Of a stretch of DNA of 64,000 bases, positions 44,626 to 48,498 are shown piece by piece; the stretch's first letter is position 1, and every line of letters starts with the position of its first letter. Below the pieces are notes generated by a model. That model made no database searches. It had not been told where the DNA came from and saw nothing but the letters and a program-made list of their open reading frames with translations. The stretch lies in assembly GCA_030583665.1 (NCBI GenBank), contig CP129469.1:3029043-3093042 (forward strand), in the 5' to 3' direction. A program made the position numbers and the translations under genes. The stretch is from Candidatus Jettenia sp. AMX2. GTDB taxonomy: Bacteria; Planctomycetota; Brocadiia; Brocadiales; Brocadiaceae.

Positions 44626-45082
44626 ATGAAAATTCCTATACTATCAAGTTACAAATCTTTTCGCAAGGGGGTCGAACAACTCCTTGCCGAAGATATTGTC
44701 CAGGTTTTTCATCTGTATGGCGCCAGAAGCAATCTTCCGCTTTTAGGAGCAGTGGGACCTTTACAGTTTGAGGTTATGCAGTATCGTCTCAAGGATGAAT
44801 ATGGGGCAAAGTCCAGATTAGAGTCCATACCGTGGAAGGTTCTCAGATGGCTTGATACCCCCTTTACATGATACAGACCTAAAACGGTCCTTACCGCATG
44901 GTGCTGTGTCAGGTACTGACGAACAAGGACGAACTGTCATTCTTTTCCCTTCTGAGTGGTCGTTAAAATATTTTTCGGAAAAGAACCCCTCAATAAAATT
45001 TTCTGATTCACCCCCAAAAAACAGATGCAGTAAAACAAAATTTGATAAGAAACAAGTTGGTTGGGATTTTGAGTACAAATAA
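44626..45082 (+). pseudogene. prfC: Peptide chain release factor 3 (prfC) C-terminal remnant, frameshifted
   Basis: From the ATG at 44626, SFRKGVEQLLAEDIVQVFHL and LLGAVGPLQFEVMQYRLKDE are characteristic of the RF3 C-terminal domain. The frame ends at RWLDTPFT, but another frame from about 44852 carries on the RF3 sequence with TVILFPSEWSLKYFSEKNP. The GTPase domain (about 380 residues) is missing upstream, where the A/B repeats lie. A deletion and at least one frameshift therefore inactivated the gene. RF3 is dispensable in many bacteria. Another intact copy elsewhere in the genome cannot be excluded. Confidence 0.82.
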
Positions 45083-45159
45083 AAAATCAATTGAGCCAGG
45101 TCACACAGATGGACATAATGTAGCTGTTTCATCAAACAAACTGTCAATTTAAACAGCAA

Positions 45160-45200
45160 TAAAAAAAGGCCCGCGATTTTTATCGCCGCGGGCCTTCTGT
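45160..45200 (-). terminator. Rho-independent terminator of the HAO-like operon
   Basis: On the minus strand AAGGCCCGCG and CGCGGGCCTT form a GC-rich stem with an 11-base loop and then a T-run, 33 bp after the HAO-like stop. It ends the cytochrome operon and on the other strand lies next to the end of the prfC remnant. Confidence 0.85.
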
Positions 45201-45232: not shown

Positions 45233-46843
45233 TTATTTCAGAGACGCCTTTTCCATTCCTGCCTCTCTTCGCAGGCGGGCAGCTTCTCCCTCTATCCTGT
45301 TAAACTCCATCATCATAGGTGCTTGTCCCCACCACCAGGATACGTCCTGCTGCATATGTGCTGTTCCTTTGTAACCCTGCAGCTTGTACCAGAACCACAG
45401 CCTGTTGTACATGTTCTCTATGGTAGACGGATTATCCTGCATCTGCAGGAACATACCATATACACCGAGAATAGGACCTACGACAGGGAATTTGCCTTTG
45501 AGTGTTTTAAAGGCATTATAGATTGGTTCTCCGAGGAATGCCGGACTAAGCATCTTTTCAATTCCATCGCTTAAAGGATATGGATCCCTGTTTGCTGCAT
45601 CGGGATATAAGAGGCCATCAGCAATTAAATCCTCCACAATCTTCTGTGCCTTGTCGGCCAGGGTATGCGCCTGAAACATAAATTGATCAAGTGATTTCAG
45701 ATAAGTATCAGCAAACCTGTCGCTGTGGCATTTGGCACAAACCTCCAACCAATATGATCTTTTAGCAACATTCTCCTCCGAGTAAATATCAATTTTATCG
45801 CCGATAATCTTAATCCCGTAGGGGTAGTCTTTTAAAGAAGAGGTATACTCAATATTTGATGGCGGAATCGTGCCCATACGCCAGATACCCTTCATCACCG
45901 GATTATGGATAAACCGGCCGTGTTTTTCGTACATGTGGCAGAACTGGCATGTCGGAGTACGGTAATCCTTTCCGGCTCTTACTTCCGATAAAGGTCTTGT
46001 GAAATCAAAGTGTTCTCCTTCTTTGTGGTAAATTACACCATGCTTCGATTCTCCGTAAGATTCTGAATCCGGATGGTCCGGCCCCATATGACAGGTAATA
46101 CAGGCTTCCGGTTGTCTCCCTTCCTTGGCGCTGAATTTATGCCGGGTATGGCATACATCACATTTTTCGGCTCCCGAATGGCACATATCACAACCATGTT
46201 GCCCGTACAAATATCCCCTCCGTGCTGCTTCTGCATACCAAGGTACAATAGTGTTAGCCTCCCACGATTGAACATGGTTTGGACGTCCTACTTCCCGCTC
46301 CCTTAAAAAATCATCAAACTGTTTTCTGTGGCATTCTCCGCATACCTCGCCAGTCGGCATCCTGATTTGCTTCTTTTCTGTATCTGCATGGCAATCAAAA
46401 CAATGAACTTCATTCAATATTCTGCCGGTATGCTTCTCTATATCAGCCGTTTTGCTGGAAAGATAGGGTGTGCTTTTGGGATGTTTGTGTCCTGATTCTC
46501 TCCAGTCACGTACAACTCCCGGTGTTGCTTCTTCGTGGCATGTTACACATAAATCTCTTCTTTCTTTCTCAATAAAAATAGAATGATCAAGATTTTCCAT
46601 TGGTTCATAATGCCTGTTAGGCTGCCAGTACATATCCAGCATCTGCGGTTTGAAATAGTCCTTGAAAGGACCTGAACCCTCACGCAAACCAACGTTATCT
46701 TTATAAGTAGCCCGATACCAGTCGGGTGTTCCTTCGTACAAGTCCGGTGGTGTAACCTTCTTTGGGGTTTGTGTATCGGCCCACGCCAGAGAAGTGAAAA
46801 CCAGCGTTGCAGATAAACACAAACCGAGCCCTGCTTTTTTCAT
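45233..46843 (-). CDS. Octaheme hydroxylamine oxidoreductase-like protein (HAO family)
   Basis: The 536-residue exported protein has a signal peptide (cut after AWA, about residue 22) and eight CxxCH haem sites at about 99, 148, 168, 218, 228, 248, 299 and 369, the pattern of HAO. In HAO the fourth haem (here 218) is the active P460 site. The C-terminal part where HAO and hydrazine dehydrogenase carry the tyrosine that cross-links to haem 4 reads GTAHMQQDVSWWWGQ (about 493-507), with no obvious tyrosine. By family knowledge such forms tend to reduce nitrite or hydroxylamine rather than oxidise. GGAGGT precedes the ATG. It lies 56 bp downstream of a diheme cytochrome c gene in the same direction. 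Confidence 0.92.
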   Translation of the reverse strand: MKKAGLGLCLSATLVFTSLAWADTQTPKKVTPPDLYEGTPDWYRATYKDNVGLREGSGPFKDYFKPQMLDMYWQPNRHYEPMENLDHSIFIEKERRDLCVTCHEEATPGVVRDWRESGHKHPKSTPYLSSKTADIEKHTGRILNEVHCFDCHADTEKKQIRMPTGEVCGECHRKQFDDFLREREVGRPNHVQSWEANTIVPWYAEAARRGYLYGQHGCDMCHSGAEKCDVCHTRHKFSAKEGRQPEACITCHMGPDHPDSESYGESKHGVIYHKEGEHFDFTRPLSEVRAGKDYRTPTCQFCHMYEKHGRFIHNPVMKGIWRMGTIPPSNIEYTSSLKDYPYGIKIIGDKIDIYSEENVAKRSYWLEVCAKCHSDRFADTYLKSLDQFMFQAHTLADKAQKIVEDLIADGLLYPDAANRDPYPLSDGIEKMLSPAFLGEPIYNAFKTLKGKFPVVGPILGVYGMFLQMQDNPSTIENMYNRLWFWYKLQGYKGTAHMQQDVSWWWGQAPMMMEFNRIEGEAARLRREAGMEKASLK

Positions 46844-46899
46844 CTCTTTACCTCCCTATGGTCAACATATTTAATGTTACTTTTTAGTTTTCATCTGGT

Positions 46900-47679
46900 T
46901 TAATGGTTTTCTTCCGGTTTAATAAGAGACATTACGTAGTGAGTCAAATACCACCTCTGTTCATCAGTAAGCTCTTTGGCAAAAGATGGCATCGGGGTAC
47001 CATTCAATCCTGTAGTAAATCTGAGATATACATCGCCAGATGAATTTCCACCTTTAAATTTTCCTGTAGTAAAATCAAAAGGTTTTATAGGAAATCCAAA
47101 ATCATCTTCCTGCTCTTCCGCGCTAGGGCCGTCACCGCGGCCTTCGACACCATGACACTTCCAGCATTCCAGCTTTTCTTCGTATATCTTCTTTCCTTCG
47201 GCGACTGTTCTTTCTGTTGGCCTGACCTCCAATCCTACGGTTACAGGAGGTTCGGGTTGTCTGTATTCGAAGGCCTCAGAAAAACTTTTCAATACCGGAA
47301 TCAATGATGCGCGTACCTCCTCCGATAAAATATCCCACGGGATCATCGTTGAATTCGGCACCCCATAGGAAATTGTTCTGAATATGTCTTCATTCGTGGG
47401 GAGCGAACCACTTGGGGTTGTTCTGAATTTGTATGCACCTCGTGTAAAATCACGTGGTTTCGGAAGCATCGACCTTGCAAGAGGCCCATTCCCATCTCCT
47501 TCTTCACCATGACAGGCGCTACAATATTTTTTGTAGGCCTCTTTGCCTTGTTCCGTAACCTCGGTTGGTATGGTGACTGCTTTAGCAGTTGTTGGCACTA
47601 TGCCCGCCGCCAGAGCCATACTTGCCGCTGCTGTGGCACTCCATAAACCAACCTTATCCAATAAAGCCTTAGGTTTCAT
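46900..47679 (-). CDS. Diheme cytochrome c (partner of the HAO-like protein)
   Basis: The 259-residue protein has a signal peptide (about 1-34) and two cytochrome c domains, each with one haem: CSACH at 53 and CWKCH at 172. PWD/PMPSF methionines provide possible axial ligands in each domain. It resembles electron-transfer subunits that pair with HAO-like proteins in anammox bacteria, where a diheme cytochrome is encoded beside the octaheme subunit and the two can form one complex. Here it is the first gene of the two-gene unit, 56 bp ahead of the HAO-like gene. A GGAGG site is placed before its start. Confidence 0.9.
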   Translation of the reverse strand: MKPKALLDKVGLWSATAAASMALAAGIVPTTAKAVTIPTEVTEQGKEAYKKYCSACHGEEGDGNGPLARSMLPKPRDFTRGAYKFRTTPSGSLPTNEDIFRTISYGVPNSTMIPWDILSEEVRASLIPVLKSFSEAFEYRQPEPPVTVGLEVRPTERTVAEGKKIYEEKLECWKCHGVEGRGDGPSAEEQEDDFGFPIKPFDFTTGKFKGGNSSGDVYLRFTTGLNGTPMPSFAKELTDEQRWYLTHYVMSLIKPEENH

Positions 47680-47766: not shown

Positions 47767-48498
47767 TTAAGAATATACAAATTCCACTTCTATAATTTCT
47801 CCTGGATTTATCGTTACCTCCTTTTCTAAATTACCCAATTCTTCGTGCCATGTCTTTAATTTATACGTCCCAGGGGGGATATCACTTATTTCGAAATATC
47901 CACGTTTATCTGTTATGTCAAAATAAGGATTTTCCAGAATAACAATCCAGCAATATGACTTCTTGTGAATATCACAAAATAATTTAATAGTTTCAGGGTA
48001 ATCAAATGTCCTTGAGATTCTTTGCTTATAAGAGGTGCCAAGATTAAATGGCTGGTTTTTTACTGACCGGGTATGAATGGTATGAAGTTCTTCATCACCG
48101 TTAAGGATATCGATTGTCGTTCCTACTAAAATTGCGACTACCCGGGGGACAAAGGTGTTCTTTTGCTGATCTATAACTGGTCGAATTGCGGGTATTTCCT
48201 TTTTCTTACCTTGTGTGATACCGGCAATTGATATAACGACGAAGGAAAGGCCGTTATTAAACCTGTTTACAACAATTTTATCAGAAGCGGGAACGGATGT
48301 GTCCGGCAATTCAAAGGCGCCAGGCAGGTTTAATACGGTCGCTAATAAATCGCCCTTATATTTTACCGTTCCAATGATGGAACCACCATCAACAACTTCT
48401 GTTTCGGTATAACCCTCTCCGGCAAATATGCCTTTTGCAGTTATAATATAGCTGTTTAAGGCACCGATCAAAACGCTGATAAAAAATAAGTATCTCAT
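47767..48498 (-). CDS. Secreted protein with carboxypeptidase-regulatory-like and cupredoxin-like features
   Basis: The 243-residue protein has a signal segment (about 1-20). Its middle resembles the MauL/plastocyanin-like group: ELHTIHTRS (His ligands) and FCDIHKKSYCWIVILENPYF, with Cys and His placed as in type 1 copper sites, although the usual methionine is not obvious. The end, DKRGYFEISDIPPGTYKLKTWHE, is a carboxypeptidase regulatory-like beta sandwich. The family often sits next to periplasmic cytochrome genes. It lies 87 bp upstream of the diheme cytochrome gene in the same direction, so an electron-transfer or copper-related role is possible (inference). Confidence 0.7.
   Translation of the reverse strand: MRYLFFISVLIGALNSYIITAKGIFAGEGYTETEVVDGGSIIGTVKYKGDLLATVLNLPGAFELPDTSVPASDKIVVNRFNNGLSFVVISIAGITQGKKKEIPAIRPVIDQQKNTFVPRVVAILVGTTIDILNGDEELHTIHTRSVKNQPFNLGTSYKQRISRTFDYPETIKLFCDIHKKSYCWIVILENPYFDITDKRGYFEISDIPPGTYKLKTWHEELGNLEKEVTINPGEIIEVEFVYS

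What the first reader, a model, noticed from the sequence alone, without database searches (positions are those of the whole stretch)
45233..47679. HAO-like octaheme protein without an obvious cross-link tyrosine, paired with a diheme cytochrome c
The eight CxxCH motifs and signal peptide are clear. The C-terminal segment where HAO and hydrazine dehydrogenase carry the haem-linking tyrosine appears to lack one (GTAHMQQDVSWWWGQ). Kuenenia is known to have an HAO paralogue without the cross-link, encoded beside a diheme cytochrome and forming a complex that reduces nitrite. This pair may be its counterpart and so a nitrite- or hydroxylamine-reducing enzyme feeding NO to hydrazine synthesis.
Basis: partly seen in the sequence, partly recalled or inferred. 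Interest (0 to 1): 0.65.

Follow-up and report, generated by a model that had tools for sequence, protein, structure and literature searches.

The report
Anammox nitrite-reducing HAOr–diheme cytochrome pair

Summary
Window 45233-46843 (-) encodes a 536-aa exported octaheme protein with exactly eight CxxCH motifs, and 46900-47679 (-) a diheme cytochrome c 56 bp upstream. The pair is the direct orthologue of Kuenenia HAOr (kustc0458/kustc0457, PDB 6H5L): 87.7% and 83.8% identical to the two solved chains. The haem-linking tyrosine column, located with Nitrosomonas HAO and with this genome's own HOX and HDH (all Tyr), is tryptophan here and in all 30 HAOr orthologues examined. The catalytic Asp-His pair is kept. 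The diheme gene sits directly upstream in 30 of 30 relatives with sequence there. A tree places the protein inside the HAOr clade (100/100). Nitrite to NO is the best-supported activity, shown biochemically in Kuenenia; its physiological weight is disputed by two 2025 studies. So the finding is correct but already known. Extras: in this genome NirS is not found and nirK is split across three frames, though open in a sister species. An HAOr–diheme pair also occurs in two Nitrospirota genomes in which no hydrazine synthase was detected, nested among the anammox sequences. That last point is the only part that may be new.

The parts
45233..46843 (-). haoR: octaheme HAO-like protein HAOr/HAO2 (orthologue of Kuenenia kustc0458), 536 aa, signal peptide, eight CxxCH
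45329..45346 (-). codons of D500-V-S-W503-W504-W505: Trp occupies the column where HAO/HOX/HDH carry the haem-linking Tyr
   Evidence: alignments; coordinates derived from residue numbers
46900..47679 (-). diheme cytochrome c redox partner (orthologue of kustc0457), 259 aa, signal peptide, two CxxCH
46844..46899 (-). 56-bp intergenic spacer with AGGGAGG ribosome-binding-like site ahead of haoR; no terminator seen by eye, consistent with co-transcription (inferred)
45158..45196 (-). strong intrinsic-terminator-like hairpin plus T run just after haoR (AAGGCCCGCG...CGCGGGCCTTTTTTT)
47767..48498 (-). exported protein with a C-terminal CarboxypepD-reg-like domain (cupredoxin-like by inspection), conserved directly upstream of the diheme gene in Brocadiaceae; its role with the complex is unproven

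Best explanation
A HAOr complex: an exported (anammoxosome-lumen by analogy) octaheme cytochrome with a diheme cytochrome partner. Electrons enter through the diheme subunit and pass along the haem network to haem 4 (C228DVCH). Without the Tyr cross-link that haem is an ordinary c-haem rather than a P460, and so works reductively. Beside the conserved D256-H257 pair, nitrite is reduced by one electron to NO, which hydrazine synthase can use. Shown here: sequence, orthology, missing Tyr, kept catalytic residues, conserved gene pair. Shown elsewhere: nitrite-to-NO activity and the structure in Kuenenia. Inferred: activity, partner role, localisation and physiological importance in this species.
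For: 87.7% (514 aa) and 83.8% (222 aa) identity to 6H5L chains A and B. Tyr column is Trp in all 30 orthologues with a complete C-terminus, while own HOX and HDH have Tyr. Diheme directly upstream in 30/30 loci with upstream sequence, and next to HAOr in genomes of three families of the order. HAOr clade 100/100, apart from the kuste4574-type and multicopper-fusion HAOs. Kuenenia HAOr: NO from nitrite, and abundance correlating with nitrite reductase activity at r = 0.99 (PMC12485887). kustc0458 and kustc0457 transcripts fall 28- and 39-fold (Table 1) when NO replaces nitrite (PMC6423088). The genome has hydrazine synthase, HOX and HDH.
Against: PMC11897245 found no discernible nitrite-reducing activity in the size-exclusion fractions holding kustc0458 in strain CSTR1, and favours HOX. 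Purified HAOr was slow (about 0.5 nmol NO per min per mg). Nothing has been measured in the species of the window.
Confidence: 0.9

Rival explanations
1. It is HAOr by descent, but nitrite reduction is a side reaction. Its real role is another reductive step (for example NO or hydroxylamine reduction) or electron shuttling, and HOX, NirS/NirK or the membrane-bound kuste4574-type HAO makes the NO.
For: Low purified activity and absence of activity in HAOr fractions of strain CSTR1 (PMC11897245). This genome also has a kuste4574-type paralogue (L004, 50% identical) and HOX.
Against: NO formation tracks HAOr abundance in strain MBR1. Expression falls when NO is supplied instead of nitrite. In this genome no NirS was found and nirK is split, leaving fewer alternatives.
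Confidence: 0.3
2. It is an oxidative HAO (hydroxylamine or hydrazine dehydrogenase) whose tyrosine was misplaced in the alignment.
For: Same fold family; the catalytic Asp-His is shared; NCBIfam's only hit is hydrazine dehydrogenase, at 123 bits against a cut-off of 900.
Against: Own HOX and HDH are separate genes (L005, L006) that match 4N4J/6T5E and 6HIF at over 1000 bits. No Tyr lies between Y491 and the C-terminus at position 536, so no realignment can supply one.
Confidence: 0.03

Closest known systems
Kuenenia stuttgartiensis HAOr, kustc0458/kustc0457 (PDB 6H5L)
   Same: Both subunits 84-88% identical over the solved chains, same gene order, eight plus two haems, no cross-link Tyr (AHxQQDVSWWWGQAP)
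   Different: Only ordinary orthologue divergence; neither activity nor complex has been shown in this species
kuste4574-type HAO of the Rieske/cytochrome b complex R/b-3 (own copy L004)
   Same: Closest paralogue in the genome (50%), also Trp in the Tyr column, with a Tyr two residues on (AWWYG)
   Different: Extra C-terminal stretch that looks like a membrane anchor, a hexaheme gene next to it, separate clade (100/99)
HOX (kustc1061) and HDH (kustc0694); own copies L005, L006
   Same: Octaheme HAO fold, Asp-His active site
   Different: Carry the cross-link Tyr; about 1030-1240 bits to their own solved structures but only about 125-140 bits to HAOr
Nitrosomonas europaea HAO (1FGJ, 4FAS)
   Same: Octaheme fold; D267-H268 and Y334 align with D256-H257 and Y340 here (residue roles from memory)
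   Different: Has Tyr467; hydroxylamine oxidiser; alignment is about 174 bits only

Membership tests
HAOr (HAO2, reductive octaheme HAO of anammox bacteria) | Eight CxxCH motifs in an HAO-fold protein with signal peptide | tested here: met
   the signal peptide was judged by inspection and from the start of the solved chain
HAOr (HAO2, reductive octaheme HAO of anammox bacteria) | Lacks the haem-linking tyrosine | tested here: met
   Trp in that column; HOX, HDH and Nitrosomonas HAO show Tyr
HAOr (HAO2, reductive octaheme HAO of anammox bacteria) | Falls in the kustc0458 clade rather than kuste4574/HAO3/HOX/HDH | tested here: met
   17-row clade 100/100 with Kuenenia hertensis, Jettenia, Brocadia and Scalindua; 87.7% to 6H5L_A
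HAOr (HAO2, reductive octaheme HAO of anammox bacteria) | Encoded beside its diheme cytochrome partner (kustc0457) | tested here: met
HAOr (HAO2, reductive octaheme HAO of anammox bacteria) | The two subunits form a stable complex | not testable with these tools
   Solved as a complex in Kuenenia (6H5L chains A and B); not measured in this species
HAOr (HAO2, reductive octaheme HAO of anammox bacteria) | Reduces nitrite to NO; no P460 band | not testable with these tools
   Known only for Kuenenia, and disputed in physiological weight
Oxidative HAO (HOX, HDH, aerobic HAO) | Tyr covalently linked to haem 4 (P460) | tested here: not met
   No Tyr in the column or anywhere after Y491

The most novel reading that the evidence does not exclude
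The HAOr–diheme module is not confined to anammox bacteria. Intact pairs sit in two Nitrospirota genomes (Ca. Magnetominusculus sp. LBB02, L034; an unnamed one-contig genome, L108) in which no hydrazine synthase alpha, NirK or full-length cd1 NirS was detected. They nest inside the anammox HAOr clade and keep the WWW motif (checked for L034). If so, HAOr spread by gene transfer and acts there as a stand-alone reductive nitrogen-oxide enzyme.
Probability: 0.4. Interest if true: 0.5.

Novelty: already known. Interest (0 to 1): 0.2.

Why it matters
The first anammox step, nitrite to NO, has no single agreed enzyme. A genome whose nirK is split, with no NirS found and an intact HAOr pair, is a cleaner system than Kuenenia (which has NirS) for asking whether HAOr can carry that step. 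The Nitrospirota copies offer a test of HAOr in organisms with no detected hydrazine synthase.

Tried and rejected
An oxidative HAO/HDH assignment was rejected on the missing Tyr and the presence of separate HOX and HDH genes. NirS hits in this genome (Cytochrom_D1, 31 bits) were rejected: they fall in 376- and 383-aa frames inside the two hydrazine synthase operons, so I read them as the HZS beta-propeller subunit. The original HAOr biochemistry paper (PMC8042395) is not held; its results are cited through PMC12485887 and PMC11897245. No structure was predicted because a solved structure at 88% identity exists.

Full report
OBSERVATION. The first has eight CxxCH motifs and one further cysteine, in the signal-peptide region; the second has two CxxCH motifs. 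The genes are 56 bp apart with a good ribosome-binding-like site, and a strong intrinsic-terminator-like hairpin follows the octaheme gene at about 45158-45196. Pfam identifies the first as Multi-haem_cyto (8.6e-55) and the second as a double Cytochrom_C/CBB3 protein.

IDENTITY. The best solved structure for both is one entry, 6H5L. Chain A is 87.7% identical over 514 residues and chain B 83.8% over 222. From my own knowledge, 6H5L is the Kuenenia kustc0458/kustc0457 complex; the chain descriptions ('Similar to hydroxylamine oxidoreductase', 'Conserved hypothetical cytochrome protein') agree. In the genome's octaheme set, L005 is HOX (1086 bits to 6T5E, 1026 to 4N4J), L006 is HDH (1242 bits to 6HIF) and L004 is a kuste4574-type protein.

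THE TYROSINE. The cross-link column was located from three directions: Nitrosomonas HAO, where Y491 of the precursor corresponds to mature Tyr467 (mature numbering from memory), own HOX (AHMSMYNATYGNG) and own HDH (AHGSWNDATYNDG). In the window protein the stretch is AHMQQDVSWWWGQ, so the position is Trp503, or Trp504 if the single gap is moved. No tyrosine follows Y491. All 30 orthologues with a complete C-terminus have the same WWW. The Asp-His next to the active haem is kept (D256-H257).

CONTEXT. The diheme gene lies directly upstream of haoR in all 30 loci where upstream sequence exists, across Brocadia, Jettenia, Kuenenia, Loosdrechtia and Scalindua. In Brocadiaceae an exported cupredoxin-like protein and an M1 peptidase precede it. 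The diheme partner and this cupredoxin-like protein each have a paralogue (41% and 37%) in the genome's own cluster of a bd-oxidase-like protein and NXR-like Fe-S and molybdopterin proteins; in the f5-family genome G061 the HAOr pair itself is followed by such bd-like and EB_dh cytochrome genes. That suggests, but does not show, a shared electron-transfer ancestry between the HAOr operon and the nitrite-oxidation cluster.

TREE AND HOST. The window protein is in a 17-row HAOr clade with support 100/100, separate from the kuste4574-type and the multicopper-fused HAOs. The host is in the same genus (g1) as G033, whose matches are identical to those of G473, the genome holding the Ca. Loosdrechtia aerotolerans locus L027, so it is most likely a Ca. 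Loosdrechtia species (inference). It has two hydrazine synthase alpha genes.

HOW IT WORKS. Best supported: electrons enter at the diheme subunit, cross the octaheme network and reduce nitrite to NO at haem 4, which lacks the P460 cross-link. The NO-forming activity, its correlation with HAOr abundance (r = 0.99) and the presence of HAOr in all anammox genera are published (PMC12485887; but PMC9723696, reports its absence from Ca. Bathyanammoxibiaceae), as is strong down-regulation when NO replaces nitrite (PMC6423088). The counter-evidence is also published: no discernible activity in HAOr fractions of strain CSTR1, with HOX preferred (PMC11897245). I put 0.9 on this being HAOr with nitrite-to-NO capability, and about 0.3 that nitrite reduction is not its main job in the cell.

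ALTERNATIVE NITRITE REDUCTASES HERE. Cytochrom_D1 hits are only 31 bits and lie in the hydrazine synthase operons. A NirK-like gene at G000:C1 about 633600-634620 is spread over three reading frames with an internal TGA, while the sister species and Jettenia have it open. It may be a pseudogene or an assembly error.

WHAT MAY BE NEW. Only two of 396 Nitrospirota genomes sampled carry an HAOr-type protein (57-60% identical); in both, a two-haem cytochrome gene is directly upstream. They group with the f5-family sequence inside the anammox HAOr clade (100/99). No HZS_alpha or NirK match and only weak, below-cut-off Cytochrom_D1 matches were found in either genome. The recent evolutionary study (PMC12758564) does not mention this in the passages of its main text that I searched; its supplement was not read. 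Contamination is unlikely for the one-contig genome, where rpoC-like and aldolase-like genes (by inspection) are neighbours, but the named Magnetominusculus copy is on a 61-kb MAG contig.

VERDICT. Correct observation, correct interpretation, already known system.

Noticed in passing
L034:5079-7692 and L108:4633-7261: Intact diheme–HAOr pairs in two Nitrospirota genomes (one Ca. Magnetominusculus sp. LBB02), nested in the anammox HAOr clade; no hydrazine synthase alpha detected in either.
   Followed up: partly
L046 (G000:C1:633600-634650): NirK-like gene of this genome is split over three frames with an internal TGA; open in the sister species G033 and in Jettenia. Pseudogene or assembly error.
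   Followed up: partly
L048 (G000:C1:2400275-2402023): Another octaheme HAO paralogue with a Tyr in the cross-link column is interrupted by one in-frame TAG.
   Followed up: no
L047 (G000:C1:379448-384139) and L050 (1139453-1144003): The hydrazine synthase operon is present twice; one copy is followed by HOX, two genes in between, then HDH, so the core anammox genes are clustered.
   Followed up: no
L109, L110, L111, L121: Long (837-874 aa) octaheme HAOs in other anammox genomes; the two scanned (L110, L111) carry an N-terminal two-domain multicopper (NirK-like) part fused to the octaheme part. No such long frame was found in this genome's HAO set.
   Followed up: partly
window 47767-48498 and L124:2229-3008: The conserved cupredoxin-like protein next to the HAOr pair is 37% identical to the first gene of the bd-like/NXR-like cluster; the diheme partner likewise has a 41% paralogue there.
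   Followed up: partly
window 44626-44871 (+): An 81-aa frame that looks, by eye, like the C-terminal end of release factor 3 with no full gene in front of it; a possible gene remnant.
   Followed up: no
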